From assembly GCF_030027245.1 (NCBI RefSeq), contig NZ_JASERT010000001.1, positions 2,472,501-2,536,500 of the forward strand: a DNA stretch of 64,000 nucleotides, in the 5' to 3' direction. Below are positions 2,328 through 36,515 of the stretch, one piece after another; position 1 is the first letter of the stretch, and the number at the start of each line of letters is the position of its first letter. The DNA is from Asticcacaulis sp. EMRT-3 (GTDB lineage: Bacteria > Pseudomonadota > Alphaproteobacteria > Caulobacterales > Caulobacteraceae). The translations under genes and the position numbers were made by a program. The notes under the pieces are model-generated. The model worked only from the letters and a program-made list of their open reading frames with translations. It ran no database searches and was not told where the DNA came from.

Positions 2328-2330
2328 GGT

Positions 2331-4105: not shown

Positions 4106-4133
4106 TGTATTTCCTTAAAGAGATGATGCGGGT

Positions 4134-4748
4134 TTATCCGCCCTGCATCGCCTGTTCGATTTGCTGGGCGTTCTGCTGCGGCGTCATGCTGGCGGTGAGC
4201 GGCACGTCGAACTGACCCTGCGGGTTCATCAGATAAACCACCGCCGTGTGGCTGTAGCCATAGCTGTCGCCGCTGCCGGTTTTGGTGGCGGTGGCGCGAT
4301 ATTCTTTCTCGACCTTATCAATGGCGTCCTGCGATCCGGTCAGGCCGATGACGTTTTTCGGAAAGCCGTTGGAATCGAGATAGGCCTTGAGGTTGGCCGG
4401 TGTGTCGCGCGCCGGATCGACGGTGATGAAGATGATTTGCAAATTCCTGGCCTTGTCACCGAGCAGGGCCTGGGTATGGGCCAGGTTTTGCAGGGTCAGG
4501 GGGCAGACATCGGGGCAGAAGGTGTAGCCGAAAAACACCGCCGACCACTTGCCCTTCAATATTTCTTGCGTCACCGGCTTGCCGTCCTGATCGGTCAGGC
4601 TGAACGGGCCGCCGATACGGATGGAGGGGTCGGTCTGCGAAACCGTAGCGCGCGGCGCCGGGTGCAGACCATGCCAGATATTGACACCGGCCAGAACGAT
4701 CAGCAGGGTGAAGGCGCAGGCGATGATCGCCAGTCGGAATTTGGTCAT
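4134..4748 (-). CDS. SCO1/SenC family copper chaperone
   Basis: This 204-residue thioredoxin-fold protein delivers copper to the CuA centre of cytochrome oxidase. Residues about 7-25 form an uncleaved N-terminal membrane anchor, leaving the domain in the periplasm. The copper ligands are visible: CPDVC (Cys78, Cys82) and His167 in SYGYSHTAVVYL. It is transcribed divergently from regB across only 73 bp. SenC next to regB/regA (prrB-prrC-prrA) is a known alphaproteobacterial arrangement, which suggests shared redox-linked control. Confidence 0.93.
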   Translation of the reverse strand: MTKFRLAIIACAFTLLIVLAGVNIWHGLHPAPRATVSQTDPSIRIGGPFSLTDQDGKPVTQEILKGKWSAVFFGYTFCPDVCPLTLQNLAHTQALLGDKARNLQIIFITVDPARDTPANLKAYLDSNGFPKNVIGLTGSQDAIDKVEKEYRATATKTGSGDSYGYSHTAVVYLMNPQGQFDVPLTASMTPQQNAQQIEQAMQGG

Positions 4749-4821
4749 ATCCGTCCTTTTCTTGTCAGTGTCCTATCTCAGCCCCACCCGCTCTTAGACC
4801 CTGAAACGGCCCGCCTCAAGC

Positions 4822-6222
4822 ATGTTTGTCGCCAGAACCCTCGAACGCATTTCGGATGTCCTCCATGACGGCGAGCCGGGCCCGGCCTTGTCGGGCGGGC
4901 GCGGTCAGGAGCATTTACGCCTGCGCACGCTGGTCATGCTGCGCTGGCTGGCCGTGTTCGGTCAGACGGTCATGGTGCTGCTGGTGGCCTATGGACTGGG
5001 CTTTCATATCCGGCTCGGCCTGTCGCTTGGCATTATCATGGCCAGCGTCTGGCTCAATATTACCTTAAGCCTCGGTCGCCGTTCGGTGACGCGGGTGCGC
5101 GGCTGGGAAGCGGCGCTGCAACTCAGTTTCGACGCCTGCCAACTGGCGCTTTTGCTGGGCGTCACCGGCGGGCTCGACAATCCGTTTTGCCTGATGCTGA
5201 TCGCCCCGCCCACCGTGGCGGCGGCCAATCTGCCGACGCGGCACGGGCTGGCCGTGGTGGTGGTGTCGATTATCGCCGCCTGCGGACTGGCCTTCTGGTC
5301 GCTCGACCTGCCGTGGTTTGCGGGCGAAACCTTTACCCTGCCGCACATGTACCGGTCGGGCTTTCTGGCCGCCATCATCGTCGGGATCGTGTTTACCGCC
5401 GGCTATGCCTGGCAGACGGCGCTGGAGCAGGCGCGCATGGCGCGGGCGCTGACCGCCACCCAGGCTGTGCTGGCCAAGGAACACCGCTTAAGCGCGCTGG
5501 GCGGTCTGGCCGCCGCCGCCGCCCATGAACTGGGCACGCCGCTGGGCACCATTCAGGTGGTGGCCAGGGAAATGCTCAATGGTCTGAAGCCGGGCGATGC
5601 GCTGTTTGAGGACGCCGAACTGCTGGTGTCGCAAAGCCAGCGCTGCCGCGATATTCTCAAATCCCTGTCGGCCAGCCCCGAGCGCAGCGATATGGTCTAT
5701 GAGCGCATGGCCTTGCGCAGCTTTCTCGAAGAAGCGGCAGCACCTTACCGTGCCGCGCACAAGCAGATCGTCATTTCGGTCAGCGTCGAGGGCGCGCCCG
5801 CAGGCGTTGATCCCGGCCTCGGCATGACCATCCGCCGCCGCCCGGAATGGCTGCACGCCTTTTCGGCCTTTATCGAAAACGCCGTCGATTTCGCCCGCAC
5901 CACGGTCTATGTCCGCGCCGAAGTGACGCGCGGCTTTGTCAGCGTGACCATCGAGGATGACGGGCCGGGATTCGCGCCGGACATATTGTCGCGGCTGGGC
6001 GATCCTTACGTCTCGTCGCGCTATCAGGCCGAAATCGCCGAAAACCGTGACGAGGCCAGCCATTCCGGCATGGGGCTGGGCTTCTTTATCGCCAAGACCC
6101 TGATCGAATATACCGACGCCACGGTCAGTTTCGGCAATCGTGAGGCGGGCGGGGCCCATGTGCGGGCCTTGTGGCGGCGCGAGCAAATCGATATTCTGCC
6201 TGCGGACTCACTTATTTTATAA
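4822..6222 (+). CDS. regB: Redox-sensing sensor histidine kinase, RegB/PrrB/ActS family
   Basis: RegB is a membrane kinase that reads respiratory redox state and phosphorylates RegA. The 466-residue protein has about six membrane segments in its first ~190 residues, including the quinone-site motif GGLDNPF (116-122). The H-box AAAHELGTPLGTI has His235 as the phosphorylation site, and the redox-active cysteine of the family is present in QRCRDIL (Cys275). N and G boxes (FIENAVDFA, EDDGPGF, MGLGFFIAKTLIE) are intact. It ends 11 bp before the regA start, so the two are co-transcribed. The start ATG has only a weak SD. Confidence 0.95.
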   Translation: MFVARTLERISDVLHDGEPGPALSGGRGQEHLRLRTLVMLRWLAVFGQTVMVLLVAYGLGFHIRLGLSLGIIMASVWLNITLSLGRRSVTRVRGWEAALQLSFDACQLALLLGVTGGLDNPFCLMLIAPPTVAAANLPTRHGLAVVVVSIIAACGLAFWSLDLPWFAGETFTLPHMYRSGFLAAIIVGIVFTAGYAWQTALEQARMARALTATQAVLAKEHRLSALGGLAAAAAHELGTPLGTIQVVAREMLNGLKPGDALFEDAELLVSQSQRCRDILKSLSASPERSDMVYERMALRSFLEEAAAPYRAAHKQIVISVSVEGAPAGVDPGLGMTIRRRPEWLHAFSAFIENAVDFARTTVYVRAEVTRGFVSVTIEDDGPGFAPDILSRLGDPYVSSRYQAEIAENRDEASHSGMGLGFFIAKTLIEYTDATVSFGNREAGGAHVRALWRREQIDILPADSLIL

Positions 6223-6233
6223 GGCAAAGCGTC

Positions 6234-6827
6234 ATGGACGACCCCCACGCCGACACACCCGAAGCGTCACGCGCCGCCCTAGCGGCGAAGATAGACGGTC
6301 TGGCCGATACATCCCTGCTGCTGATGGACGATGACGCGCCGTTTCGCAACCGGCTGGCGCGGGCGCTGGAGGCGCGCGGCTTCAAGGTGATCACAGCCGA
6401 AGGGGTGCGCGCGGCGATGGCGATCATTGAACAGATGCCGCCCGCCTTTGCCGTGATGGATATGCGGCTGGAAGACGGTAATGGCTTGCAGGCGGTCGAG
6501 GCCCTGCACCAAAAACGCCCCGACGCCCATGCCGTCATGCTGACCGGCTATGGCAATATCGCCACGGCGGTGGCGGCGGTCAAATCGGGCGCGGTCGATT
6601 ACCTGTCCAAGCCCGCCGACGCCGACGATGTGGTGCGCGCCCTGCTGGCCGTGGAGGACAAGGCCCCGCCGCCGCCTGAAAACCCGATGTCAGCCGACCG
6701 CGTGCGTTGGGAACATATCCAGCGCGTCTATGCCCTGTGCGGGCAGAATGTGTCGGAAACCGCCCGCCGCCTGGGGATGCACAGGCGGACATTGCAGCGG
6801 ATACTGGCCAAACGCGCGCCTAAGTAG
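6234..6827 (+). CDS. regA: Redox response regulator, RegA/PrrA/ActR family
   Basis: This is the partner of RegB, a DNA-binding regulator of respiration, carbon fixation or related redox genes. The receiver domain has the acidic MDDD cluster, phospho-acceptor Asp76 in VMDMRLEDGNG and the conserved Lys126 in SKPADADD. A Fis-type helix-turn-helix closes the 197-residue protein (VSETARRLGMHRRTLQRIL), very characteristic of RegA. An upstream in-frame ATG at 6171 lies inside regB; the ATG at 6234 fits the family N-terminus. A CACGGA-bounded repeat element begins 17 bp after the stop. Confidence 0.95.
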   Translation: MDDPHADTPEASRAALAAKIDGLADTSLLLMDDDAPFRNRLARALEARGFKVITAEGVRAAMAIIEQMPPAFAVMDMRLEDGNGLQAVEALHQKRPDAHAVMLTGYGNIATAVAAVKSGAVDYLSKPADADDVVRALLAVEDKAPPPPENPMSADRVRWEHIQRVYALCGQNVSETARRLGMHRRTLQRILAKRAPK

Positions 6828-22799: not shown

Positions 22800-24686
22800 A
22801 TGTCTTCGAGTGAAGCGGCCAAACGCGAAACTTCCGTCTCCTTTAAGGCGAATACGGCTAAGGCGAAGATGGCTGTGCGGCCCAAGGCGCGCCCCGAACT
22901 GGTGCTGAGCCGCCAGATTGTTACCGATCCGTCACGCGACGCCCTGCTGACCGACTTCGGCAAGACCACGCTCGACGACCGCTATCTGATGCCCGGCGAA
23001 ACCTATCAGGACATGTTTGCCCGCGTCGCCAATACCTTTGCCGACGATGCCGACCACGCCCAGCGCATCTATGACTATATCTCGAAGCTGTGGTTCATGC
23101 CGTCCACGCCGGTGCTGTCAAATGGCGGCGCGGCGCGCGGCCTGCCGATCTCGTGCTTCCTCAATGCCGTGCCCGATAATCTCGAAGGCATTGTCTCGAC
23201 CTGGAATGAAAACGTGGCCCTGGCCAGCAATGGCGGCGGCATCGGCACCTATTGGGGCGGCGTGCGCTCCATCGGCGAAAAGGTCAAGGGGGCGGGCCAG
23301 ACCTCCGGCATCATCCCCTTCATCCGCGTGATGGATTCGCTGACGCTTGCCATTTCGCAAGGCTCCTTGCGCCGTGGTTCGGCCGCCGTCTATATCGACA
23401 TCTTCCACCCGGAAATCGAGGAATTCCTCGAAATCCGCAAATCTTCGGGCGACTTCAACCGTAAATCGCTCAATCTGCACCACGGTATCGGCGTCACCGA
23501 CGAATTCATGGAGGCCGTGCGCGATGGCACGCCGTTCGGCCTGCGTTCGCCCAAGAACAACGAAGTCCTGCGCTATGTCGATGCGCGTTCGCTGTGGCAG
23601 AAGATCCTCGAAATCCGCCTGCAAACCGGCGAGCCCTATCTGATCTTCTCCGATACGGTCAATCGCTCCATGCCTTTGCATCAGCGCGAACTGGGCCTGA
23701 AGGTGCGCCAGTCGAACCTGTGCTCGGAAATCATGCTGCATACCGGCCCCGATCACCTTGGCCGCGACCGCACCGCCGTGTGCTGCCTGTCGTCGGTCAA
23801 TGCCGAAACCTTCCTCGAATGGCGCGACCAGCCGGGCTTTATCGAGGACGTGATGCGCTTCCTCGATAATGTGCTGGAAGACTTCATCCAGCAGGCTCCC
23901 GGTTCGATGGACGCCGCCGTCTATTCGGCCAAACGCGAACGCTCGGTAGGCTTAGGCCTGATGGGCTTCCACTCCTTCCTGCAAAGTCAGGGCGTGGCGT
24001 TTGAATCGGCGATGGCCAAGTCGTGGAATATGCGCCTGTTCAAGCATCTGCGCCGCGAGGCCGACAAGGCTTCGGTCAAGCTGGCCGAGGAACGCGGGCC
24101 CTGCGAAGATGCCGCCGAGCGCGGCGTGATGGAACGCTTCTCGCACAAGCTGGCCGTGGCCCCCACCGCCTCGATCTCGATCATCTGCGGCGGCACCTCG
24201 GCGGGTATCGAGCCGATCCCGGCCAATATCTACACCCACAAGACCCTGTCCGGGTCGTTTGCGGTCAAGAACCCCTATCTGGTGGCGCTTCTGGAAGAAA
24301 AAGGCCAGAACACATCGGAAATCTGGGATTCCATCGTCGAAAACGAAGGCTCGATCCAGCATCTCGACTTTCTGTCCGAGCATGAAAAGGACGTGTTCAA
24401 GACGGCGTTTGAAATCGACCAGCGCTGGGTGGTCGAACTGGCCGCCGACCGCACGCCGGAAATCTGCCAGTCGCAGTCGCTCAACATCTTTCTGCCCGGC
24501 GATGTCAATAAGTGGGACCTGCACATGCTGCACTGGACGGCGTGGGAGCAGGGGCTGAAATCGCTCTATTATATGCGCTCTAAGTCGGTGCAGCGCGCTG
24601 CCCATGCCGGTTCCGAAACCAAGGAAGCGGTCGAAAAGATGGACATGCCGAAGACGGATTACGAGGAATGCCTCGCCTGTCAGTGA
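22800..24686 (+). CDS. nrdA: Class I ribonucleoside-diphosphate reductase alpha subunit
   Basis: NrdA reduces ribonucleotides to deoxyribonucleotides with a radical supplied by NrdB (not in this window). The 628-residue sequence has the first active-site Cys in LPISCFLNAVPDN, the catalytic NLCSEI (Asn, Cys, Glu), the partner CCLSSVN, the PTASISIICGGTSAGIEP loop and the C-terminal redox pair CLAC. The ~90-residue N-terminal ATP-cone is absent: the core begins near residue 35 (LVLSRQIVTD). Overall-activity control by dATP may be lost or done differently. Two NrdR boxes lie upstream and a strong terminator downstream. Confidence 0.96.
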   Translation: MSSSEAAKRETSVSFKANTAKAKMAVRPKARPELVLSRQIVTDPSRDALLTDFGKTTLDDRYLMPGETYQDMFARVANTFADDADHAQRIYDYISKLWFMPSTPVLSNGGAARGLPISCFLNAVPDNLEGIVSTWNENVALASNGGGIGTYWGGVRSIGEKVKGAGQTSGIIPFIRVMDSLTLAISQGSLRRGSAAVYIDIFHPEIEEFLEIRKSSGDFNRKSLNLHHGIGVTDEFMEAVRDGTPFGLRSPKNNEVLRYVDARSLWQKILEIRLQTGEPYLIFSDTVNRSMPLHQRELGLKVRQSNLCSEIMLHTGPDHLGRDRTAVCCLSSVNAETFLEWRDQPGFIEDVMRFLDNVLEDFIQQAPGSMDAAVYSAKRERSVGLGLMGFHSFLQSQGVAFESAMAKSWNMRLFKHLRREADKASVKLAEERGPCEDAAERGVMERFSHKLAVAPTASISIICGGTSAGIEPIPANIYTHKTLSGSFAVKNPYLVALLEEKGQNTSEIWDSIVENEGSIQHLDFLSEHEKDVFKTAFEIDQRWVVELAADRTPEICQSQSLNIFLPGDVNKWDLHMLHWTAWEQGLKSLYYMRSKSVQRAAHAGSETKEAVEKMDMPKTDYEECLACQ

Positions 24687-24715
24687 CCAGGCGCCGTGCA
24701 TTTTTGTAAACCCAA

Positions 24716-24762
24716 AAAAAAGCTAAGGCTACCAGTAACTCACTGGCAGCCTTAGCTTTTTT
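24716..24762. terminator. Bidirectional rho-independent terminator between nrdA and kup
   Basis: A long stem, AAAAAAGCTAAGGCT-x-CCAGT / ACTGG-x-AGCCTTAGCTTTTTT, with a 5-base loop and A/T tracts at both ends. It sits between the convergent nrdA and kup stop codons and should end transcription from both sides. Confidence 0.93.
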
Positions 24763-24781: not shown

Positions 24782-26722
24782 TCAAATGGTCATCTGCGTG
24801 CCCAGCTCGACCACGCGCCCCGGCGGGATATGGAAGAAGTCGGTCGGGTTGGTGGCGTTCTTCATCAGGAAGATGAACAGCCTGTCCTGCCACAAGGGCA
24901 GGCCGGAATTGTTCGATGGCACGACATTGCGTTTGCCGAGGAAGAAGCTGGTGGCCATGATGTCGAACTTCAGCCCCTGTTTGCGGCACAGGCCAAGGGC
25001 GCGCGGCAGGTTGGGGCTTTCCATGAAGCCGTAGCGCACGGTTACTTTTTTGAAGTCGTCATTCAGCACCTCGATGGCGATGCGTTCGTCTTCGCTGACG
25101 CGCGGCGCATGGGTCGTTACCACGCTTAATATGATGTTCTTCTCGTGCAGCACCTTGTTGTGCTTGAGATTGTGCATCAGGGCGACCGGAGCGGCGTCAG
25201 AATCGGAGGTCAGGAAGATAGCGGTGCCGGCGGCGCGGTGCGGCGGGCGCTTTTTCAACATCTCGATCAGATCGGTCAGCGATATGGCATCGCGGCGCGC
25301 TTTTTCGCTCAGCAGGCGTGTGCCGGTCGTCCAGGTGGTCATGATCAGGATCATCGCCCCGCCAAAGGCCAGAGGCAGCCAGGCACCGGTGAAGAACTTG
25401 GTCAGGTTGGAGGCCATGAAGATGGCCTCGATGGCACCCAGCGGCACCAGCAGGATCAGGGTGCGTGTACGCGACCAGCCCCATGTCTTGCGGATCACCA
25501 CCCAGGCCATGACGGTGGAAATAAACATGGTGCCGGTGACCGCGATGCCATAGGCCGAGGTCAGGGCGTCGGAGCTGCGGAAGGCGACAATCAGCATCAG
25601 CACGCCGATCATCAGCAAGGTATTGACCTGCGGCACAAAGATCTGGCCGGCCTGGGTTTCCGAGGTGCGCCGGATGTCGATGCGCGGCAGAAGGCCGAGC
25701 TGCACGGCCTGCTGGGTCATCGAATAGGCACCTGAAATCACCGCCTGCGAGGCGATCACGGTCGCCATAGCGGCCAGAACCAGCATCGGCCAGTACATCA
25801 GATCGGGGATCATGCGCCAGAACGGATTGCCCATCGCGCTGGGGTCGATCAGGCACAGGGCGCCCTGACCGAGATAGTTGAGCATCAGGGCCGGAAAGAC
25901 AACGGCCAGCCAGGCCGCGCCGATCGGGTTGCGGCCGAAATGGCCCATATCGGCATAAAGCGCCTCGGCTCCGGTCACCACCAGAAACACCGAGCCCAGG
26001 ATAATGAAGCCGGTAAAACCGTTGGAAATCAGGAAACTGACGCCATAGACGGGATTGAGCGCCAGCAGCACGTCGGGGCGTTCGACGATATAGCGTATGC
26101 CGATGCCGCCGATGACGAGGAACCAGATCAGGGTGATGGGCCCGAAGAAGCGCGACACTTTTTCGGTGCCCTTGGACTGGACAAGGAACAAAACGACCAG
26201 AATGACGATGGAAACCGGCACGACCAGATGATCGAGGCTGTGGCCGACATTGGGCGCGTCCTTGAAGCCTTCGATGGCCGACATGACCGACAAGGCCGGG
26301 GTGATCAGGCTGTCGCCGTAGAAGAGCGCCGCGCCGCAGATGCCGAGGAAAAAGATCATGGGCGAGTAACGGCCCAGCGCATTTTGCGCCAGCGCCATCA
26401 GGGCCAGGGTGCCGCCTTCGCCCTTATTGTCGGCGCGCATCAGGAAGATGACGTATTTGATGGTCACCAATAGCAGCAAGGCCCAGAAGATCAGCGAGAT
26501 CACCCCGAAAATGGCCAGATGATTGCCAACATCGCCGCGCGTGTGGCGCAGGGCCTCGCGCATGGCATAGAGCGGCGAGGTGCCGATGTCGCCGAACACC
26601 ACGCCGAGCGCGCCCATCGTCAGCAGCCAGAAGCTGTCGCGGCCATGACCGTGGGCAGCAGGGGCGGCGGGTGCCTGCGACGTTTCGGCGGTGACTATTG
26701 CGCTTTGTGAAGACGTGTCCAT
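24782..26722 (-). CDS. kup: KUP/Trk-H-type potassium uptake protein
   Basis: Kup is a constitutive low-to-moderate-affinity K+ (H+ symport) transporter of the inner membrane. The 646-residue protein has about 12 membrane segments, starting with GALGVVFGDIGTSPLYAMREAL, a family signature, then GDSLITPALSVMSAIEG. The C-terminal soluble part (about 450-646) ends PTDFFHIPPGRVVELGTQMTI. The ATG at 26722 is chosen because GAGG lies 6 bases upstream. It begins 8 bp after the KdpC-like stop, so it is the third gene of an operon with degenerate Kdp subunits, an unusual setting. Confidence 0.94.
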   Translation of the reverse strand: MDTSSQSAIVTAETSQAPAAPAAHGHGRDSFWLLTMGALGVVFGDIGTSPLYAMREALRHTRGDVGNHLAIFGVISLIFWALLLLVTIKYVIFLMRADNKGEGGTLALMALAQNALGRYSPMIFFLGICGAALFYGDSLITPALSVMSAIEGFKDAPNVGHSLDHLVVPVSIVILVVLFLVQSKGTEKVSRFFGPITLIWFLVIGGIGIRYIVERPDVLLALNPVYGVSFLISNGFTGFIILGSVFLVVTGAEALYADMGHFGRNPIGAAWLAVVFPALMLNYLGQGALCLIDPSAMGNPFWRMIPDLMYWPMLVLAAMATVIASQAVISGAYSMTQQAVQLGLLPRIDIRRTSETQAGQIFVPQVNTLLMIGVLMLIVAFRSSDALTSAYGIAVTGTMFISTVMAWVVIRKTWGWSRTRTLILLVPLGAIEAIFMASNLTKFFTGAWLPLAFGGAMILIMTTWTTGTRLLSEKARRDAISLTDLIEMLKKRPPHRAAGTAIFLTSDSDAAPVALMHNLKHNKVLHEKNIILSVVTTHAPRVSEDERIAIEVLNDDFKKVTVRYGFMESPNLPRALGLCRKQGLKFDIMATSFFLGKRNVVPSNNSGLPLWQDRLFIFLMKNATNPTDFFHIPPGRVVELGTQMTI

Positions 26723-26730
26723 AAGGAACC

Positions 26731-27267
26731 TCATGCCAGCCTGTGGTCGAGACGCAGATTGACGATCAGAAGATTGACCGACGGTACGCCACGAAGGCTG
26801 AAGGTGGGATTAAAGGTGGAGGCCCGGATGGCCGCTTCGATGACGCTGAGCGGAACGCCTCTGGCGCGGGCGATGCGCGGTGCCTGAAAGTCGGCGGCGG
26901 CGCGGCTGATGACGGGATCGAGACGGCTCGGGGTGAAGCGGGCCAGTTCAGCGGGTACGCCGGGGCCAAGCCGGGTTTGCCATGATTGCAGTTCGCGGCG
27001 GCAGGCTTCGCTGGCATTACCGGCGCAGGCCGGATCGTAAAGCGGGCCCCAGATATAGGCGGGATCGCCCTGATGCCGGGTGGTGAAGACCGAGGCCAGC
27101 GGCGTGCCGTGAGTGGCAGGCACGGTCAGATCGCGCATCTGCTGGTCAAAACCATTGCGCACCGCCGCCTGCTCAAGCGCGGGCAGAAGGACGCCGCCCA
27201 GCAGCAGCCCGCCGATCAGCAGGGCCAGAGGCGCACGCACCGGCGTAAAAAGGGCCGGATACCTCAT
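26731..27267 (-). CDS. KdpC-like protein (divergent paralogue)
   Basis: A 178-residue protein with one N-terminal membrane segment (LALLIGGLLLGGVLLPAL) and the KdpC C-terminal core: SRLDPVISRAAADFQAPRIARARGVP and PSVNLLIVNLRLDHRLA. It matches the true KdpC at 32535-33122 in those regions but lacks the GSNFGVNNP motif and has a rewritten middle with CAGNASEAC. The true kdpC is complete elsewhere, so this is an extra copy. Its start overlaps the KdpA-like stop (ATGA), and kup follows at once. A regulatory or accessory role is inferred. Confidence 0.85.
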   Translation of the reverse strand: MRYPALFTPVRAPLALLIGGLLLGGVLLPALEQAAVRNGFDQQMRDLTVPATHGTPLASVFTTRHQGDPAYIWGPLYDPACAGNASEACRRELQSWQTRLGPGVPAELARFTPSRLDPVISRAAADFQAPRIARARGVPLSVIEAAIRASTFNPTFSLRGVPSVNLLIVNLRLDHRLA

Positions 27268-28289
27268 GACGAAGCTCCGGACGCCAGAACGCGCCGCACG
27301 CCGGGCGAGGCAGCCAGGGCCAGGGCCGGAATGGCCAGCCAGAAGTGGATGAAGAGTTGCGCCAGCGCCGCCAGCCAGGGCAGGGCGAGGAAGACCGGCA
27401 TCTGGGGCATAGCCGCCTGCTGCGCCGCCAGTGTGAGCGCGAGGCTGCCGGCGCAGATCAGAAAGCCGAAGACGCGCTTTCGGCTTATATGGGCGTACAG
27501 CCCAAAAAGACTAGCCGGGGCGATCAGGTTGACAAAACCGATCACGGCGTCGCCGCGCGCCGCATGTAAGATTTGGGCTGTCGCCAGATCGACACCCGGA
27601 TTTCCGCTGCCTTGCCAGCCATCGAGGCAGGCGGCGACGCCACTTGTCGCCGTCAGCCCCAGATGCAGGCAGGCCAGAGGCGTCAGGATGCAGATGAGCG
27701 CCCGGATCAGATCGCTCCAGTAATTGCCAACCTCGCCATTGGGGCTGCACAGGGCGCGGATCGTGACGGCGCACAGGGCCAGGGTGGCGGCGGATCCGAC
27801 AAAGGCGGCGCCGCGTGACAGGTCGCCTGAAAGGAGGTCGCCTGAAAGCAGGCCGCCAGAGAGGAGGCCGGACGGATCGCCTGCCACGGCCCGCGCTGCC
27901 AGGGCGAAGGCGTTGGCCGCGTCATGGCCGTCCGCCGCCAGAGCGGCATAGACGAGGACGAACAGCAGGCAGGAAAAGCTGAGGGCCGCCAGCGCGGCCT
28001 GGCTCCAGCTCATCCGGGTCTGGGCCTGCGGGCCCACGAGTCGCTGCAACAGACGCACGGGCATATCGAGAACTGGACTGAGCAGGGTTTCCCGGCCGGT
28101 AAAGACCCTGGCCATATAGGCGCCCGACAACCAGGCCGCCAGCAGCGCTATGGTGAAGCTGAGCAGCCAGGCACAGGGTTGAGCGACAATCGATGTGAGA
28201 AACGCAAACGGAAACGGCGACAACATGGGCCAGAACTGGATGTTTCGGCGCACCGAAAAGGCGGACGCGCGAGCTGATCCGCGCCTCAT
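27264..28289 (-). CDS. Shortened KdpA-like membrane protein
   Basis: This 341-residue hydrophobic protein is related to KdpA (586 residues at 28657). Matching parts are AWLSGAYMARVFTGRETLLSPV versus Kdp[22 protein letters not shown], and GNYWSDLIRALICILTPLACL versus [21 protein letters not shown]. The first pore loop ([14 protein letters not shown] in KdpA) is replaced by Ala-rich sequence and LSGGLLSGDLLSGD repeats. The [15 protein letters not shown] and NNNGSAFAG pore loops are missing. It cannot be a normal K+ channel subunit, but the frame is intact. The start is uncertain (ATG 28289 or 28226). Confidence 0.75.
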   Translation of the reverse strand: MRRGSARASAFSVRRNIQFWPMLSPFPFAFLTSIVAQPCAWLLSFTIALLAAWLSGAYMARVFTGRETLLSPVLDMPVRLLQRLVGPQAQTRMSWSQAALAALSFSCLLFVLVYAALAADGHDAANAFALAARAVAGDPSGLLSGGLLSGDLLSGDLSRGAAFVGSAATLALCAVTIRALCSPNGEVGNYWSDLIRALICILTPLACLHLGLTATSGVAACLDGWQGSGNPGVDLATAQILHAARGDAVIGFVNLIAPASLFGLYAHISRKRVFGFLICAGSLALTLAAQQAAMPQMPVFLALPWLAALAQLFIHFWLAIPALALAASPGVRRVLASGASS

Positions 28290-28300
28290 AATTCAAATCG

Positions 28301-28411
28301 CGTATAGGCGGCGTATAGATATGCCGGAAGCCTGTATAATTTCTGTATAGAGGCGCGCCGTCTATACGAAACCTATATGCACCGGGTGCGCCTTTATATG
28401 CCGCCTATACC
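28301..28411. promoter_or_regulatory. Divergent kdp control region with GTATAG/CTATAC motif array
   Basis: The 163-bp gap between the KdpA-like gene and the small ORF before kdpF has seven or more variants of GTATAG or CTATAC. A perfect 11-bp inverted pair, GTATAGGCGGC (28302-28312) and GCCGCCTATAC (28400-28410), brackets the array. Single motifs appear near 28313, 28334, 28345, 28362, 28372 and 28394. KdpE operators are AT-rich repeats, so KdpE binding controlling both directions is the leading guess. Confidence 0.5.
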
Positions 28412-28452: not shown

Positions 28453-28548
28453 ATGCTGTTTGTCTTCCTTATTCTGGGGCTCGGTTTCTTTGCCCTGTCG
28501 GCCCTGCTGGTGCGTCTGTGCCAGCGTCTGCTGGAGGGCGGTTCATGA
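28453..28548 (+). CDS. 31-residue membrane peptide coupled to kdpF
   Basis: A 31-codon ORF: MLFVFLILGLGFFALSALLV followed by RLCQRLLEGGS. It is one transmembrane helix with a basic cytoplasmic end. GGAGG lies 6 bases before the ATG, and the stop overlaps the kdpF start (ATGA). I believe similar FFALS-LxVRxC-xRL peptides precede kdpF in other bacteria, but this is from memory and needs a search. It is probably a Kdp-associated small subunit or a translational leader. Confidence 0.6.
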   Translation: MLFVFLILGLGFFALSALLVRLCQRLLEGGS

Positions 28549-28637
28549 GCGCCCTGATTCTTGTGGGCGGCGTCATCGTCGCCGGTCTGTTCGGCTATCT
28601 GCTGGTCGCTTTGATCAAGCCCGAACTCTTTCCCTGA
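28545..28637 (+). CDS. kdpF: K+-transporting ATPase small subunit KdpF
   Basis: A 30-residue hydrophobic peptide starting MSALILVGGVIVAGL and ending ALIKPELFP; the K-P-E-x-F end is typical of KdpF, which stabilises the KdpABC complex in the inner membrane. Start overlaps the preceding small ORF, and kdpA begins 19 bp after its stop. Confidence 0.9.
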   Translation: MSALILVGGVIVAGLFGYLLVALIKPELFP

Positions 28638-28656: not shown

Positions 28657-30417
28657 ATGTTTTCGTTCATTCCCGCCGCAGGCTGGTTGCAGCTTGCGCT
28701 CTATATGGTCGTGCTGATCGGCGCGTCGATCCCGCTCGGCCGCTTCATGGCGCGCGTGCTGAAGGGCGAGCGCACCTTCCTGTCGCCCGTTGTCGCGCCC
28801 GTCGAGCGCCTGATCTACAAAGCGTGCGGCATCGATCCTCAAGCTGACATGCGCTGGCAGGACTATGCCGCCGCCATGCTGGTCTTTTCTGTCGTCAGCT
28901 TTGTGGTTCTGTTCCTGATGCTGCTGGGCCAGGGCGTGCTGCCACTCAATCCGCAGCATCTGCCGGGCCTGTCCGCCGATCTGTCCTTCAATACGGCGGC
29001 CAGTTTCGTCACCAACACCAACTGGCAGGCCTATGGCGGCGAAACCACTATGAGCTATTTCAGCCAGATGGTGGGTTTGACCGTGCAGAACTTCGTCACC
29101 CCCGCCGTCGGGCTGGCGGTGATGGCCGCCATGATCCGCGGTCTGGCGCGTAAAGAAAGCACGGGCCTCGGCAATTTCTGGGCCGATATGGTGCGCGCCA
29201 CCCTCTATATCCTTTTGCCGATGTCGTTCGTTCTGGCGCTGATTTTGGGCGCGCAGGGCGTGGTGCAGACCTTTCATCCTTACGTTACCGCGCATGGCCT
29301 GCAAGGCGTTGATCAGGTGATCGCGCTGGGGCCGGTTGCCTCGCAAGAGGCAATCAAGATGCTGGGCACGAATGGCGGCGGCTTCTTCAACGTCAATTCG
29401 GCCCATCCGTTTGAGAACCCGAACCCTCTGACCAACTTCCTTGAGCTGTTGTCGATCCTGCTGATCCCGGCCGCCTGTTGCGAAACCTTCGGCGTCATGG
29501 TCGGCGACAAACGGCAGGGCCGCGCCATCCTGACCGCCATGACGGTGATCTTCGTGCCGCTGATGCTGATGTGCGTCATCGCCGAGCAATCGGGCAATCC
29601 GCATTTCACGGCGCTGGGTGTCGATCAGATCGCCAGCCATTTGCAGAGCGGCGGCAATATGGCCACCGCCGCGCAAAGCGGCGGCAATATGGAAGGCAAG
29701 GAGACGCGCTTCGGCATCGTCAATTCCGCCCTGTGGGCTTCGGCCACCACGGCGGCGTCGAACGGTTCTGTCAATGCCATGCACGACAGCTTCACGCCGC
29801 TGGGCGGGCTGATCCCCCTATTGTTGATGAAGTTTGGTGAAATCATCTATGGCGGCGTCGGTTGCGGGCTTTACGGCATGTTGATCTTCGTTCTGCTCAG
29901 CGTCTTCATCGCCGGTCTGATGGTGGGGCGCACGCCGGAATATCTCGGCAAGAAGATCCAGAGCTTCGAGATCAAGATGGCCTCGCTGGTCATGCTGATC
30001 CCCGGCATACTGGTGCTGGTGGCCACTGCCATCGCCGTGATGACGAAGGCCGGGCAGGCGGGCATTTTCAATCCCGGCGCGCAGGGGTTCTCGGAAATCC
30101 TCTACGCCGTCACCTCGGCCAGCAATAATAACGGCTCGGCTTTTGCGGGCCTCAGCGCCAATACGCCGTTTTACAATACGCTGCTTGGCATCTGTATGCT
30201 GGTCTCGCGCTTCTGGGTGATCGTGCCGGTACTGGCCATCGCCGGATCGCTGGCGGCCAAGAAGCGCGTGCCGGAATCGGCGGGTACGCTGCCGACCCAT
30301 ACGCCTCTGTTCGTGGCCGTCGTGGTCGGGGTAATCCTGCTGATCGGCGTCCTGACCTATGCCCCGACGCTTGCGCTCGGCCCCGTGGTCGAACATTTCC
30401 ATATGATTGAGGGATAG
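28657..30417 (+). CDS. kdpA: K+-transporting ATPase potassium-binding subunit KdpA
   Basis: KdpA is the channel-like subunit of the high-affinity K+ pump. The 586-residue protein has ten membrane segments and all four pore loops: [50 protein letters not shown] and [12 protein letters not shown]. Length is normal. It is followed at 5 bp by kdpB. Compare the shortened relative at 27264, which lacks these loops. Confidence 0.97.
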
Positions 30418-30421
30418 GACA

Positions 30422-32521
30422 ATGACATCCCAGTTCAAAAAGAGCGGCCTCTTTGAGGGTGCCGACATCGGCTCGGTGCTGAAACAGACCGTGCTGCGCC
30501 TCAACCCCGTCTATCAGTTGCGCAACCCGGTCATGTTCCTGGTGTTCGCAGGTTCGGTCGTCACGACGCTGATCTTCGTCGCCATGCTGGTCATGCCTCA
30601 TGCGCCGAGCGTCAGGGCGCTGGCGGGTGGGCAGGGCGCGGTCTTCGTCGGCCTCGTCGCCTTCTGGCTGTGGTTCACGCTTTTGTTCGCTAATTTCGCC
30701 GAGGCCATCGCCGAGGGCAAGGGCAAGGCGCAGGCCGATTCGCTCAAGAAAGCCCGCCGCGATGTCAGCGCCAAAAAGCTGGCCAAAAGCGCCGACCGCA
30801 AGAAGTTCCAGACCGTGCCCGCCAATGGCTTACGCAAGGGCGATCTGGTGGTGATCGAAGCGGGCGATTTTGTCCCCACCGACGGTCAGGTGATCGAGGG
30901 CATCGCTTCGGTCGATGAAAGCGCCGTCACGGGCGAGTCCGCGCCGGTGATCCGCGAATCGGGCGGCGACCGCGACGCGGTGACCGGCGGTACGCGCGTC
31001 TTGTCCGACTGGCTGGTGGTGCGCGTCACCTCCGATCCGGGCGAAAGTTTCCTCGACCGTATGATCGGTCTGGTCGAAAGCGCCAAGCGCCAGAAGACGC
31101 CCAATGAAATCGCCCTGTCGATCCTGCTGGCGGCCCTGACCATCATCTTCCTGCTGGTGTGCGTAACCCTGCTGCCCTATTCGTGGTTCAGCGTGGCGCA
31201 TACGGGTGCCGGAACCGTCATCTCGGTGACGGTGCTGATCGCCCTGCTGGTCTGCCTGATCCCCACCACCATCGGCGGCCTTTTGTCAGCCATCGGCATT
31301 TCCGGGATGCAGCGCCTGATCCGCGCCAATGTCATCGCCACCTCCGGGCGCGCGGTCGAGGCGGCGGGCGATGTCAATGTGCTGCTGCTTGACAAGACCG
31401 GCACCATCACCTTCGGCAATCGTCAGGCGGTGGAGTTCCTGCCTGCGCCCGGCGTCTCCGAGCAACAACTGGCCGAGGCGGCAGAGCTGTCGTCTCTGGC
31501 CGACGAGACGCCGGAAGGCCGCTCCATCGTCGTGCTGGCGCGGCAGAGGTTCAGCCTGCCTGAGCGGCGGGCGAGCGACATCGACGCCGACTTCATCCCG
31601 TTCAGCGCCGAACAGCGCGTATCGGGCGTGGTGGTGGCCGACCGCCACATCATGAAGGGCGCGGGCGACGCCATCGCCAGACTGATCGCGCTCAAGGGCG
31701 GCGCTATCCCCGCCGAGGTCAATGGCGATATTGAGCGCATCGCGCGTTCCGGCGGCACGCCGCTGCTGGTATCGGAAAACAGCCTCGCGCTCGGCGTTGT
31801 CTATCTGAAGGACATCGTCAAGCCGGACATCAAGGCGCGTCTGGCCGAGCTGCGCCGCATGGGCATCAAGAGCATCATGATCACCGGCGACAACCCGCTG
31901 ACCGCCGCCGCCATCGCCTCCGAAGCCGGGGTGGACGATTTCCTGGCTCAGGCGACGCCGGAGACGAAGCTTGCCTATATCCGCAAGATGCAGGAAGGCG
32001 GTGAACTGGTGGCGATGGTCGGCGACGGCACGAACGACGCGCCCGCTTTGGCGCAGTCGGACGTGGCCGTGGCGATGAATTCCGGCACCCAGGCCGCCAA
32101 GGAGGCGGGCAATATGGTCGATCTCGATTCCGATCCGACCAAGCTGATCGAGATTGTCGAGATCGGCAAACAGCTCCTGATGACGCGCGGTGCCCTGACC
32201 ACCTTCTCGATCGCCAATGATCTGGCCAAGTATTTCGCTATTATTCCGGCGGCCTTCGCCGCGACCTATCCGGCACTTGGCGCGCTGAACCTGATGGGCC
32301 TGACCAGTCCGCAAAGCGCCATCCTGTCGGCGGTCATCTTCAATGCCCTGATCATCATCGCCCTCATCCCGCTGGCGCTGAAGGGCGTCAAATACCGCCC
32401 GGCCTCCGCCGCCAGCCTGTTGTCGCGCAATATGCTGATCTATGGGCTGGGCGGGCTTGTCGCGCCCTTTATCGGCATCAAGCTGATCGATATGGCGGTC
32501 ACCGCCATCGGTCTGGCGTAA
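30422..32521 (+). CDS. kdpB: K+-transporting P-type ATPase subunit KdpB
   Basis: KdpB is the ATP-hydrolysing P-type ATPase subunit. The 699-residue protein has the phosphorylation motif DKTGTIT (Asp324), TGES in the actuator domain ([11 protein letters not shown]), the [12 protein letters not shown] hinge and seven membrane segments. The ATG at 30422 gives the family N-terminus; an in-frame ATG at 30407 overlaps kdpA and is less likely. Spacing is 4 bp after kdpA. Confidence 0.97.
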
Positions 32522-32534
32522 AAGGAATCGCATC

Positions 32535-33122
32535 ATGAACGCCTATCTTTCCGCTTTACGTCCCGCCATCGTCTCCACAGCCCTGCTCACCGTCCTTTTG
32601 GGCGGTGTCTATCCGGCGGTCACCACGGCGGTTCTGCACTTGAGCTTTCACAAGCAGGCCGAGGGCAGCCTGATCCGCAGCCCGGCGGGCCGGATCGTCG
32701 GTTCAGAACGGATTGGTCAGAACTTCGACCAGCCGCGCTATCTGTGGGGCCGTCTGTCGGCGACCGGGCCCACGCCCTATAATGCCGGAGCCTCGTCCGG
32801 TTCGAATTTCGGTGTCAATAATCCGGCCCTGCTGGCGGCGGCGGAAGCGCGCATCAAGGCGCTGAAGGCTGGCGATCCGGGTAATAAGGCATTGATTCCC
32901 GTCGATCTGGTCACGGCGTCCGGCTCCGGCCTCGACCCGGAGATCAGCCCCGCCGCCGCCCAATATCAGGTCGGGCGCATCGCCAAAGCGCGCGCCATCA
33001 GCCCCGATGTGGTGCGCGCCGCCATCGCAAAATCGACCAAGGGGCGCACCTTCGGGATTCTGGGCGAACCGCGCGTCAATGTGCTAGAGGTCAATTTAAG
33101 ACTGGATGGCCTTTTGACGTGA
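32535..33122 (+). CDS. kdpC: K+-transporting ATPase subunit KdpC
   Basis: KdpC is the periplasm-facing chaperone-like subunit. The 195-residue protein has one N-terminal helix, the GSNFGVNNP motif, SGSGLDPEISPAAAQYQVGRIAKARAI and the C-terminal RVNVLEVNLRLD. It follows kdpB by 13 bp, and its stop overlaps the kdpD GTG start, so the pump and its sensor are translationally linked. Confidence 0.96.
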   Translation: MNAYLSALRPAIVSTALLTVLLGGVYPAVTTAVLHLSFHKQAEGSLIRSPAGRIVGSERIGQNFDQPRYLWGRLSATGPTPYNAGASSGSNFGVNNPALLAAAEARIKALKAGDPGNKALIPVDLVTASGSGLDPEISPAAAQYQVGRIAKARAISPDVVRAAIAKSTKGRTFGILGEPRVNVLEVNLRLDGLLT

Positions 33123-35824
33123 ATAGCGATACCCGACCCGATCCCGATAAGCTGCTCGCCCTCGTCCGCAAGGACGGGGGCGAAGACGCGCCCGGAACCA
33201 CCAGACGCGGTCGCCTGAAGATCTTCTTTGGCGCCTCGGCGGGGGTGGGCAAGACCTATGCCATGCTGTCCGAGGCGCGCGCCCGTAGCCGCGAAGGCCG
33301 TGATGTGGTGATCGGCGTGGTCGAGACGCATGGCCGCAGCGAAACGGCCAGCCTGACCGAAGATATGGAGCTTGTGCCGCGTAAAGCCATCGATCATCGC
33401 GGCGTCGCCATGACCGAGTTCGATCTCGATGCCGCATTGGCGCGCAAGCCTTCGCTGATCCTGATCGACGAATTCGCGCACAGCAATGCGCCGGGATCGC
33501 GCCATCCCAAGCGCTGGCAGGATGTCGAGGAACTGCTCGACAATGGGGTTGATGTCTATACCACGCTCAATGTCCAGCACCTCGAAAGCGTCAATGATCA
33601 GGTGGCGCGCCTGACCGGCGTGTGGGTGCGCGAAACCGTGCCCGACCGCGTGTTCGACGCCGCCGACGAGATTGCGCTGATCGACATTCCGTCCGATGAG
33701 CTGCTGCGCCGTCTGGCCGACGGCAAGGTCTATGTCGCCGAGGGGGCCAGTCGCCGCGCCGCTGAAAACTTCTTTAAAAAAAGCAATCTGCTGGCCCTGC
33801 GCGAACTGGCGCTGCGCCGCACCGCCGAGCGCGTCGATGCCCAGAGCGACGAACTGAGCGCGGCGCTGGGGCGCGATGAGCCGCAACTGGGCCAGAAGAT
33901 CATGGCGCTGATCGGCCCTGATCCCTTATCGATGCGGTTGATCCGCCACGCCGCGCGCATGGCCAAGGGGATGCGCGCGCCTCTGTGCGCCGTTTATCTG
34001 CAAGGCGAGCGGCACGAGCGGCTGGATGAGCGGGCGCGCGACCGCGTTGAGCAGTATCTGCGTCTGGCCGAACATATGGGCGCGCGCATTGTGCGGCTGT
34101 CCGGCGCGCATCCGGCGCGCGACATCCTGGCCTATGCCCGCCAGACCGGCTTTACCCGCATCGTGGTTGGCCACCGCAAACCGCCTTTGTGGGCCTTTTG
34201 GCGTCCGTCATTCGCGCAGCAACTGATCGCAGGCGGCGAGGGGCTGGAGATTGCCGTCCTGCATGGCGACCGCGGTCCGGCGCGCCGGGAAGCGGCCTCA
34301 ACGGAGCGCGCGCCGGGGCGTTTGTGGCTGCGGCCCTTTCTGGCCCAGCCGCTCGACTATGCGCTGGCAGCGGGCGGCGTGGCCCTGTGCACCGGGCTCG
34401 GCCTGCCGTTCCGTGATCATACGCCCTCGACCAATCTGGCCATGATCTATCTGACCGGCGTGGTGGTGATCGCCGCACGCCTTGGTCTGGGGCCGTCGGT
34501 GCTGGCCTCGCTGCTCAGCGTGCCGGCGTTCAACTTCTTCTTCACCCAGCCCTATTACAGCTTCAATTTTTACGACACCTATTATTACATAACCCTGGCC
34601 TTCATGCTGGTGACCTCTTTGCTGGTCGGTTCGCTGACGGCGCGCCTGTCGCTCAATGTGCAGCAGGTCAGCGACCGCGAACGCGAGACGCAAGGGCTGT
34701 ATGATCTGTCGCGCGCCCTGTCGGCCGAACGCGGCGTGGAGCGCATTTGCGAGGTCGCGGTGGCGCATCTGACCGAGCCCTATGATCTGAGCGTGACGGT
34801 TTTCGTGCGCAATGGCCCGAATCTGCGGCCTTTTCCGGCCAGCGCGCTCAGCGACGACATGAAGGAGATGAGCGCGGTCAACTGGGTGGCGGCCAATGGC
34901 CAGATGGCCGGGCGTGACACCGACACCCTGCCGTCGGCGGTCGGGCTGTACCTGCCGCTCAGCGCCGAGGGCGAAACCATCGGGGTGCTGGGCCTGATTC
35001 CCAATGACGGCGCGCGCCCGTTTCGCGGCCCGGAAATCCTGCAATTCGGCACGGCGGCGGGCCTGATCGCCGGGGCTCTGCAACGGGCACGGCGCTCCGA
35101 CGAGGCGGCGCAGTCCCGCGTCGAATCGGAAAATGAGCGGCTGCGCAATGTGCTGTTGTCGTCCTTGTCGCACGATCTGCGCACGCCGCTGACCGTGATG
35201 AACAATTCGGTCAGCACGCTTGTGCGGATGCGCAAGGATCTGCCGCGCAAGGCGATGGACGAGCTGACCAGCCTGTGGAGCCAACTGACGCGCTTGCAGA
35301 AATTCGTCAGCAACCTGCTCAGCATGGCGGCGATCACCTCCGGCCAGATGCAGTTCAACTTCCAGCCCTACACGATTCAGGAAATCATCGGTGCGGCTTT
35401 GTCTCACACCGAGGCCGGGCGCGAACAGCGCACTGTGCGCACCCAGATGACCGGCGTGCTGCCGCTGGTGCGCATCGATGGCGCCCTGATCGAGCAGGTT
35501 CTGGTTAATCTGATCGAAAACGCCTATCAGCATACGGCCAGTGACGGCGACATCCTGATCCAGGCCGAGCCGGAGGCCGACCGTGTGCGGGTCAGGGTTT
35601 CCGACAATGGCGGCGGTCTGAAGCCGGGCGACGAAGCGCAGATATTCGAGCAGTTCCAAACCGGCCAGACCGTGACCTCAGACCGATCCGGAAAAGGCTC
35701 CGGTCTGGGGCTGGCCATCTGCCGCGGTGTAATCCGTGCCCACGGCGGCGTCATCTATGCCCGCAACAACCGTGCCCCGCGCTCTGGCGCCAGTTTTATT
35801 TTCACCCTGCCTGTGGCTGAATGA
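33119..35824 (+). CDS. kdpD: Osmosensitive K+ sensor histidine kinase KdpD
   Basis: KdpD senses K+ limitation and phosphorylates KdpE. The 901-residue protein has an N-terminal KdpD domain with Walker-A-like GASAGVGKT (about 38-46), a UspA-like module (about 250-370), four membrane segments around 400-520, a GAF-like region, the H-box SSLSHDLRTPLT with His685, and the ATPase boxes NLIENAYQHT and SDNGGGL. The start is GTG at 33119, overlapping the kdpC stop. kdpE follows 4 bp later. Confidence 0.96.
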   Translation: MNSDTRPDPDKLLALVRKDGGEDAPGTTRRGRLKIFFGASAGVGKTYAMLSEARARSREGRDVVIGVVETHGRSETASLTEDMELVPRKAIDHRGVAMTEFDLDAALARKPSLILIDEFAHSNAPGSRHPKRWQDVEELLDNGVDVYTTLNVQHLESVNDQVARLTGVWVRETVPDRVFDAADEIALIDIPSDELLRRLADGKVYVAEGASRRAAENFFKKSNLLALRELALRRTAERVDAQSDELSAALGRDEPQLGQKIMALIGPDPLSMRLIRHAARMAKGMRAPLCAVYLQGERHERLDERARDRVEQYLRLAEHMGARIVRLSGAHPARDILAYARQTGFTRIVVGHRKPPLWAFWRPSFAQQLIAGGEGLEIAVLHGDRGPARREAASTERAPGRLWLRPFLAQPLDYALAAGGVALCTGLGLPFRDHTPSTNLAMIYLTGVVVIAARLGLGPSVLASLLSVPAFNFFFTQPYYSFNFYDTYYYITLAFMLVTSLLVGSLTARLSLNVQQVSDRERETQGLYDLSRALSAERGVERICEVAVAHLTEPYDLSVTVFVRNGPNLRPFPASALSDDMKEMSAVNWVAANGQMAGRDTDTLPSAVGLYLPLSAEGETIGVLGLIPNDGARPFRGPEILQFGTAAGLIAGALQRARRSDEAAQSRVESENERLRNVLLSSLSHDLRTPLTVMNNSVSTLVRMRKDLPRKAMDELTSLWSQLTRLQKFVSNLLSMAAITSGQMQFNFQPYTIQEIIGAALSHTEAGREQRTVRTQMTGVLPLVRIDGALIEQVLVNLIENAYQHTASDGDILIQAEPEADRVRVRVSDNGGGLKPGDEAQIFEQFQTGQTVTSDRSGKGSGLGLAICRGVIRAHGGVIYARNNRAPRSGASFIFTLPVAE

Positions 35825-35828
35825 GCAA

Positions 35829-36515
35829 ATGAACGAACCCCTGATCCTGTGTATCGAGGACGATGCCGACATCCGCCGCTTTCTGAAATCCACACTGGCC
35901 GCCAATGCCATGCAGACTCTGGAGGCGGCGACCGCGAAGGAGGGGTTGCAACTGGCGTCCAGCCGCAGCCCCGACATCATCCTGCTCGATCTCGGCCTGC
36001 CCGATATGGACGGCATGGACCTTATCCGCCGATTGCGCGAATGGGGCACCACGCCGATTGTGGTGCTGTCGGCGCGCGACCGCGAGCGCGACAAGGTGGC
36101 GGCGCTCGAACTGGGGGCCGATGATTATCTGACCAAGCCCTTTTCCGCCGCCGAGCTGATCGCGCGCATCCGCGTGGCGCAGCGCCATGCCGGACGGCAG
36201 ATCAGCGAAGCCGCCTTTGTTTTTGATCGCGGCGGCCTCTTCATCGACAATGCGGCGCGGTGCGTGCGGGTCGATGGCGCCGAGATTCGTCTGACGCCCA
36301 TCGAATACAAGCTTTTGCTGACCTTGGCGCGCCACGCCGATAAGGTGTTGCCGCACTCGACCCTGCTGGCCGAGGTGTGGGGCAGGCACGGGCAGGACAC
36401 CCAGACCTATCTGCGCATCCACACCCAGCACCTGCGCGAAAAACTGAAGGACGATCCGCTCAAGCCGCGCTTCATCTTTACCGAACCGGGTATAGGTTAC
36501 CGGTTACGCGCCTGA
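35829..36515 (+). CDS. kdpE: KDP operon response regulator KdpE
   Basis: An OmpR-type regulator of 228 residues. The receiver domain has EDD at 10-12, phospho-acceptor Asp54 in LLDLGLPDMDG and Lys in LTKPF. The winged helix includes LTPIEYKLLLTLARHADKVLPHSTLLAEVWG and ends GIGYRLRA. The ATG at 35829 fits the family. It is the last gene of the kdp operon and probably acts on the motif array at 28301-28411. Confidence 0.96.
   Translation: MNEPLILCIEDDADIRRFLKSTLAANAMQTLEAATAKEGLQLASSRSPDIILLDLGLPDMDGMDLIRRLREWGTTPIVVLSARDRERDKVAALELGADDYLTKPFSAAELIARIRVAQRHAGRQISEAAFVFDRGGLFIDNAARCVRVDGAEIRLTPIEYKLLLTLARHADKVLPHSTLLAEVWGRHGQDTQTYLRIHTQHLREKLKDDPLKPRFIFTEPGIGYRLRA

What the first reader, a model, noticed from the sequence alone, without database searches (positions are those of the whole stretch)
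24782..28289. An operon of a shortened KdpA-like protein, a KdpC-like protein and Kup, divergent from a complete kdp operon
Seen: three tightly spaced minus-strand genes (4-bp overlap, 8-bp gap). The KdpA relative has 341 rather than 586 residues and lacks the [17 protein letters not shown] and NNNGSAFAG pore loops, yet is open throughout. The KdpC relative keeps its C-terminal core but not GSNFGVNNP. Established: KdpA and KdpC work with KdpB in one pump; Kup works alone. Inference: the degenerate pair may form a non-transporting K+ module that senses K+ or modulates Kup or Kdp.
Basis: partly seen in the sequence, partly recalled or inferred. Interest (0 to 1): 0.8.

Follow-up and report, generated by a model that had tools for sequence, protein, structure and literature searches.

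The report
Pore-less Kdp pair with inducible Kup
Some Asticcacaulis bacteria keep a second potassium operon in which two cut-down relatives of potassium-pump subunits, stripped of the parts that hold potassium, sit in front of an extra potassium importer; the pair is conserved and probably assists or regulates potassium uptake instead of carrying potassium itself.

Summary
A minus-strand operon (kdpA', kdpC', kup) lies divergent from a complete kdpFABCDE operon in an Asticcacaulis genome. The same divergent cluster occurs in three further Asticcacaulis genomes (4 of 25 searched), and more KdpA' and KdpC' proteins turn up in metagenomes: a conserved family.

KdpE-type direct repeats face both operons in 4 of 4 clusters. 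They precede all 9 members of a separate Kup2 clade and none of 17 other kup genes examined. One genome without KdpA or KdpC keeps KdpD-KdpE-box-Kup2.

Best reading: a KdpDE-induced second uptake operon built on Kup2, carrying in some lineages a non-transporting KdpA'-KdpC' heterodimer, probably accessory or regulatory. Conservation, loss of the filter and the box layout are shown; KdpE control, the heterodimer and its target are inferred. No description was found in the paper library searched.

The parts
27264..28289 (-). kdpA' : KdpA-like protein without K+ filter (341-aa ORF; likely start 28226, 320 aa)
26731..27267 (-). kdpC' : KdpC-like protein, C-terminal core kept
   Evidence: ORF; Pfam KdpC 60.1 bits; 21-member KdpC' set
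27001..27027 (-). Codons of the KdpC' cysteine pair (residues 81 and 89), where Asticcacaulis KdpC has GASSGSN..NNP
   Evidence: two Cys in 21 of 21 KdpC'
24782..26734 (-). kup2 : second Kup K+ transporter (alternative start 26722)
   Evidence: Pfam 587.8 bits; member of the 9-row Kup2 clade, 100/100; another kup at G000:C1:2294248-2296149
28302..28317 (-). KdpE-type direct repeat TATAC-N6-TATAC facing kdpA'
   Evidence: exact match
28334..28349 (-). KdpE-type direct repeat facing kdpA'
   Evidence: exact match
28363..28378 (+). KdpE-type direct repeat facing kdpFABC
   Evidence: one mismatch to TATAC-N6-TATAC
28395..28410 (+). KdpE-type direct repeat facing kdpFABC
   Evidence: one mismatch
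28453..28548 (+). 31-aa membrane peptide ORF at the head of the kdp operon
   Evidence: a similar ORF is visible before kdpF in the other kdp loci printed
28545..28637 (+). kdpF
   Evidence: name by likeness and position, recalled
28657..30417 (+). kdpA, canonical, with intact filter motifs
30407..32521 (+). kdpB (ORF; likely start 30422)
   Evidence: TIGR01497 1022.1 bits
32535..33122 (+). kdpC, canonical
33119..35824 (+). kdpD sensor kinase
   Evidence: ORF; same protein found beside kdpC in other genomes; name by likeness and position
35736..36515 (+). kdpE response regulator (ORF; likely start about 35829)
   Evidence: ORF; name by likeness and position; homologues beside kdpD in L036 and L096

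Best explanation
The operon is a second arm of the KdpDE response. At low K+, KdpE binds the direct repeats between the operons and drives kdpFABC one way and kdpA'-kdpC'-kup2 the other way (inferred from the boxes). Kup2 imports K+ (family knowledge). KdpA' and KdpC' form a membrane heterodimer, the KdpA' helix scaffold carrying the periplasmic KdpC' domain, which is probably pinned by a disulfide (inferred). KdpA' has lost the K+ filter, TM10 and the intact KdpB-coupling segment (shown by sequence), so the pair is very unlikely to pump K+. It most likely acts as a non-transporting accessory or regulatory subunit of the K+ uptake induced beside it, with Kup2 the likelier partner and KdpFABC the alternative (inferred).
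For: Conserved divergent cluster in 4 of 25 genus genomes. Filter motifs 1-4 not intact in any of 14 KdpA', TM10 absent in 14, fold still KdpA. Cys pair in 21 of 21 KdpC'; 56 of 67 canonical KdpC have none. No stops in four KdpA' and four KdpC' genes, whereas a neutral copy was open in 0 of 200 runs at divergence 0.3, 0.6 or 1.0. Boxes face both operons in 4 of 4 clusters with the 6+5+6 layout of E. coli KdpE sites (PMC3264566 passages). Box before the gene or its operon in 9 of 9 Kup2 rows, 0 of 17 other kup rows. KdpD-KdpE-box-Kup2 in G141, which has no KdpA or KdpC match. kdpA' and kdpC' overlap in 3 of 4 genomes and are 5 bp apart in the fourth.
Against: Kup2 occurs without the pair in 5 of 9 rows, so Kup2 does not need it. 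kdpC' and kup are 52 and 104 bp apart in L036 and L035, so coupling to Kup is looser than within the pair. Elevated dN; comparisons with the window are near saturation. Genome-wide, the reversed control pattern is commoner than the box with one mismatch (114 against 35), so a single box proves little. No expression, binding or interaction data; no complex was modelled.
Confidence: 0.4

Rival explanations
1. The pair is slowly decaying debris of a duplicated kdp operon that lost kdpB, carried along between a KdpE promoter and kup2.
For: Graded shrinkage (426-434, 381-393, 368, 305-326 aa); dN 2.7 and 4.4 times the canonical subunits; the pair is absent before Kup2 of G119, whose triple box is nearly identical to that before kdpA' of G149, so it is dispensable.
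Against: Frames open in all genes read at saturated dS against 0 of 200 in the neutral control (substitutions only); new cysteine pair in 21 of 21 KdpC'; motifs GN[FY]W.D and W..IPALA in 14 of 14 KdpA'; KdpA' and KdpC' stay together (4 of 4 genomes; four matching contig lengths).
Confidence: 0.2
2. The pair modulates KdpFABC, not Kup2: KdpA' or KdpC' competes with the canonical subunits in assembly, or docks on the finished pump, and limits or tunes it.
For: Common ancestry with KdpA and KdpC; all four genomes with the pair have the kdp operon right beside it with boxes facing both.
Against: The [11 protein letters not shown] stretch near the coupling helix is deleted in 6, mostly deleted in 2 and altered in 6 of 14 KdpA', and TM10 is absent in 14; the coupling helix meets KdpB (PMC6255902 passages). 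The pair shares an operon with kup, not with kdpFABC.
Confidence: 0.2
3. The pair is a periplasmic K+, redox or osmotic sensor that feeds the KdpD kinase.
For: KdpC' carries a conserved cysteine pair; all four genomes have KdpD.
Against: No filter left to bind K+; no signalling domain found by Pfam; 22 of 25 genomes have a KdpD match but only 4 have the pair.
Confidence: 0.1

Closest known systems
KdpA, potassium-binding subunit of KdpFABC (PF03814; PDB 5mrw, 6hra, 7nnp)
   Same: Homologous by profile and fold; N-terminal helices, GN[FY]W.D and the W..IPALA helix kept
   Different: 320 against 586 aa; filter motifs and TM10 gone; no KdpB in the operon; far below the NCBIfam kdpA cut-off (46.7 against 387.7 bits)
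KdpC of KdpFABC (PF02669)
   Same: N-terminal hydrophobic stretch, C-terminal core and VNxLxxNxRLD ending
   Different: Cysteine pair where Asticcacaulis KdpC has GASSGSN..NNP; below the NCBIfam kdpC cut-off (44 against 152.55 bits)
Kup/KUP K+ transporter (PF02705, TIGR00794)
   Same: Full-length, above both cut-offs
   Different: Belongs to a second Kup clade preceded by KdpE-type boxes
KdpDE two-component regulation of kdpFABC
   Same: Direct repeats of 11-bp period as in E. coli KdpE sites (PMC3264566 passages)
   Different: Boxes also face kdpA'-kdpC'-kup2 and solitary kup2 genes; in G141 a KdpD lacking its N-terminal half stands with KdpE and Kup2 and no KdpA or KdpC match
Non-transporting auxiliary or silent subunits of pumps and channels (works-like comparison)
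   Same: A paralogue or partner without its own transport path that tunes a transporter; PMC6255902 (passages) compares KdpC with the Na,K-ATPase beta subunit; silent channel subunits are recalled
   Different: Assembly not shown here; likeness of role only

Membership tests
KdpA (transport subunit) | Pfam PF03814 above the gathering score | tested here: met
   66.8 bits, cut-off 22.6
KdpA (transport subunit) | NCBIfam equivalog TIGR00680 above its cut-off | tested here: not met
   46.7 bits, cut-off 387.7
KdpA (transport subunit) | Four filter loops ([17 protein letters not shown], loop 3, NNNGSAFAG) | tested here: not met
   none intact in 14 of 14 KdpA'
KdpA (transport subunit) | Ten TM helices including TM10 | tested here: not met
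   TM10 columns empty in 14 of 14; best alignment stops at chain residue 521 of 557
KdpA (transport subunit) | Overall KdpA fold | tested here: met
KdpA (transport subunit) | KdpB encoded in the same operon | tested here: not met
   no KdpB ORF or tblastn match between kdpA' and kup in 4 clusters
KdpC | Pfam PF02669 above the gathering score | tested here: met
   60.1 bits, cut-off 24.1
KdpC | NCBIfam equivalog TIGR00681 above its cut-off | tested here: not met
   44 bits, cut-off 152.55
KdpC | Loop with [AS]S[GH]SN | tested here: not met
   0 of 21 KdpC'; but only 33 of 67 canonical rows show this pattern, so it is a weak criterion
Kup | K_trans domain and TIGR00794 cut-off | tested here: met
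   587.8 bits; 557.3 against 539.6
KdpE-regulated promoter | Direct repeats of 6 bp, 5 bp apart | tested here: met
KdpE-regulated promoter | KdpE binding and induction at low K+ | not testable with these tools
   needs experiment
Auxiliary subunit of a K+ transporter | Physical association with the transporter | not tested
   the structure tool folds one chain at a time

The most novel reading that the evidence does not exclude
KdpA'-KdpC' is a de-pored half of the Kdp pump recruited as a regulatory subunit complex of an unrelated transporter, Kup2, and made at low K+ under KdpDE: part of a P-type pump turned into a non-transporting regulator of a secondary transporter.
Probability: 0.3. Interest if true: 0.8.

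Novelty: new variant of a known kind. Interest (0 to 1): 0.6.

Why it matters
KdpA is known as the K+-selecting subunit of the KdpFABC pump, and the role of KdpC is still open (PMC6255902 and PMC12629597, passages). A natural KdpA-KdpC pair without filter and without KdpB separates the non-transport roles of these subunits from pumping and makes them testable. The data also point to a rewired KdpDE response in Asticcacaulis in which an extra Kup is induced, in one genome apparently without a Kdp pump.

Tried and rejected
Chance ORFs: rejected (family profiles, homologues, synteny). Simple debris: disfavoured, kept as a rival.

Wide distribution: strong matches were seen only in Asticcacaulis: KdpC' in 4 of 390 family genomes (E <= 1e-48) and 2 of 398 order genomes (E <= 1e-45; G145 and G149 evidently not drawn), KdpA' in 1 of 385 class genomes (E <= 1e-68). 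I set these cut-offs to leave out canonical Kdp (one search's 1e-45 barely does so), so distant relatives could be missed. The scan of named genomes gave three Asticcacaulis loci and six KdpA loci of other bacteria with no kup match in the fetched stretch.

The protein searches were incomplete: 8000 candidates scored, 120 rows listed, and the KdpA' of G149 was not among them although its KdpC' was found.

Two other exact boxes in the genome (G000:C1:2721233 and 2808930) lie near ORFs that I read as glycoside hydrolase and aldolase; I take them for chance. Nesting of KdpA' within Asticcacaulis KdpA is neither shown nor rejected (AU p 0.359).

Rows dropped: P0047 (near copy of P0046) from A5 and the trees. 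P0174 was classed as canonical KdpC by its loop although it scores among the KdpC' rows. Of 34 kup genes in the 25 genomes (my count after joining split ones), 26 were in the tree; the kup of G029, G068, G075, G099, G104, G109, G129 and the second one of G119 were not fetched.
Full report
WHAT IS THERE. The window lies in an Asticcacaulis genome (G000, 3,316,911 bases in 4 contigs). The genus follows from same-genus genomes whose contigs have the lengths of A. benevestitus NZ_AQWM01000019.1 (74,755) and A. taihuensis NZ_FMTS01000001.1 (1,471,759). The three minus-strand ORFs exist as described: KdpA-like 27264-28289, KdpC-like 26731-27267, Kup 24782-26734, divergent from a 31-aa peptide, kdpF, kdpA, kdpB, kdpC, kdpD and kdpE. 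The likely start of KdpA' is 28226 (320 aa), where homologues start and where the distance to the boxes is like that in the other three genomes.

CONSERVED. Of 25 Asticcacaulis genomes searched, 21 have a KdpC match and 4 have in addition a distinct KdpC' and KdpA': the window, G014 (A. taihuensis), G145 (A. benevestitus) and G149 (an uncultured MAG). In these four the order is kup, kdpC', kdpA', then divergent kdpA, kdpB, kdpC (the G149 contig ends inside kup). kdpA' and kdpC' overlap by 4, 10 and 4 bp in three and are 5 bp apart in G149. kdpC' and kup are 52 and 104 bp apart in G014 and G145. Strong matches outside the genus were not seen: KdpC' in 4 of 390 family genomes and 2 of 398 order genomes, KdpA' in 1 of 385 class genomes, at cut-offs I set to leave out canonical Kdp. 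Protein searches added KdpA' from elsewhere (P0002-P0006, 305-326 aa; P0045-P0051, 381-434 aa, P0045 being A. benevestitus) and 20 KdpC' besides the window's (P0163 from A. solisilvae). Four longest-contig lengths are shared by a KdpA' and a KdpC' (6288, 2657, 314897, 113451).

SELECTION. Four KdpA' and four KdpC' genes have no stop. A neutral copy of the taihuensis kdpA' was open in 21 of 200 runs at divergence 0.1 and in 0 of 200 at 0.3, 0.6 and 1.0 (substitutions only). NG86 for benevestitus-taihuensis: KdpA' dN 0.35, dS 1.70; KdpC' 0.30, 2.73; Kup2 0.075, 1.67; KdpA 0.126, 0.90; KdpB 0.044, 0.65; KdpC 0.069, 1.07. The pair is constrained but looser than the canonical subunits. Against the window dN is 0.67-0.87 with dS 1.17-1.88, close to saturation and weak as evidence; YN00 failed for most pairs. 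KdpA' is one clade at 100/100 with long branches. Without the window-type rows and G149, the 7 mid-length rows are one clade at 100/100 and a join with Asticcacaulis KdpA is not rejected (AU p 0.359).

REGULATION. Between the operons lie four TATAC-N6-TATAC repeats (two exact, two with one mismatch), two facing each way, each pair 32 bp apart. The window holds 5 matches to TATACN6TATAY with up to one mismatch, 0.26 expected, 4 of them here. Genome-wide there are 4 exact TATACN6TATAC, 2 of them here, but with one mismatch the reversed control pattern is commoner (114 against 35). E. coli KdpE sites are 6-bp direct repeats 5 bp apart (PMC3264566, passages), the same 11-bp period. Boxes within one mismatch face both operons in 4 of 4 clusters. 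In 8 kdp loci without the pair they face kdp only in 7 (G145:C6, G133, G119, G114, G124, G085, G089); in G094 none within one mismatch precedes kdp.

KUP2. Of 26 kup rows in the tree (26 of 34 kup genes), 9 form a clade at 100/100: the four cluster kups, G119_C13, G133, G145_C2, G114 and G141_C8. A box precedes the gene in 5 and the kdpA' operon in 4; none precedes the other 17, for which about 900 bp or more upstream was held. The rows are related, so these are not 26 independent trials. The kup2 of G114 is split in two frames. In G119 the triple box before kup2 is nearly identical to that before kdpA' of G149. G141 has no KdpA or KdpC match but has a 475-aa KdpD lacking the N-terminal half, KdpE, a box and Kup2 in a row. 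The 8 genomes with Kup2 all have a KdpD match; the three without one (G052, G080, G153) have one kup each, outside the Kup2 clade. This makes KdpDE control of Kup2 likely; it is not shown by experiment.

HOW IT MAY WORK. Shown: filter motifs lost, pair conserved, boxes facing both ways. Inferred: KdpE induction; heterodimer (coupled genes, common ancestry with interacting subunits); disulfide (KdpC is periplasmically oriented, PMC6255902 passages). The target is open. I favour Kup2 because the pair shares its operon and because the stretch near the KdpB-coupling helix is lost or altered; against it, Kup2 occurs without the pair in 5 of 9 rows.

LITERATURE. Searches of the PMC library: KdpA with Kup and Asticcacaulis, 0 papers; truncated KdpA, KdpA-like, KdpC-like, second kdp operon, kdpX, 9 papers, listing only, none on this by title and abstract start; Caulobacter with Kup, Kdp and potassium, 12 papers, listing only; KdpDE with Kup and regulon, 10 papers, listing only; Asticcacaulis with potassium transport, 2 papers, listing only; KdpA homolog, orphan KdpA, KdpA paralog, without or lacking KdpB, KdpA fragment, 2 papers, listing only. 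None described this pair as far as the listings show; most subscription papers are not held. Passages only were seen of PMC6255902, PMC3264566 and PMC12629597.

Noticed in passing
L096 (G141:C8:117500-126500), 1953-6308: A KdpD lacking its N-terminal half (475 aa) beside KdpE, a KdpE-type box and Kup2, in a genome with no KdpA or KdpC match: KdpDE without the Kdp pump.
   Followed up: partly
L063 5932-7656 (Dyella tabacisoli) and L065 4666-6363 (Dyella silvatica): Full-length KdpA-like proteins with no KdpB or KdpC match in the 12.5-kb and 7.4-kb stretches held: possible orphan KdpA.
   Followed up: partly
window 28453-28548: A 31-aa membrane peptide ORF overlapping kdpF at the head of the kdp operon; a similar ORF is visible in the other Asticcacaulis kdp loci printed.
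   Followed up: no
window about 24713-24760: A strong hairpin flanked by A and T runs between kup and the convergent ribonucleotide-reductase-like gene (22800-24686), read by eye; looks like a terminator for both sides.
   Followed up: no
L067 (G133) and L069 (G114); L071 (G133): kup genes split into two frames in G133 and G114, and a kdpB split in G133: frameshifts or sequencing errors.
   Followed up: no
L035 and L073 (G145, A. benevestitus): Two complete kdp operons in one genome; the one on C6 lacks the divergent cluster and its KdpA groups with G133 (81/32, weak).
   Followed up: partly
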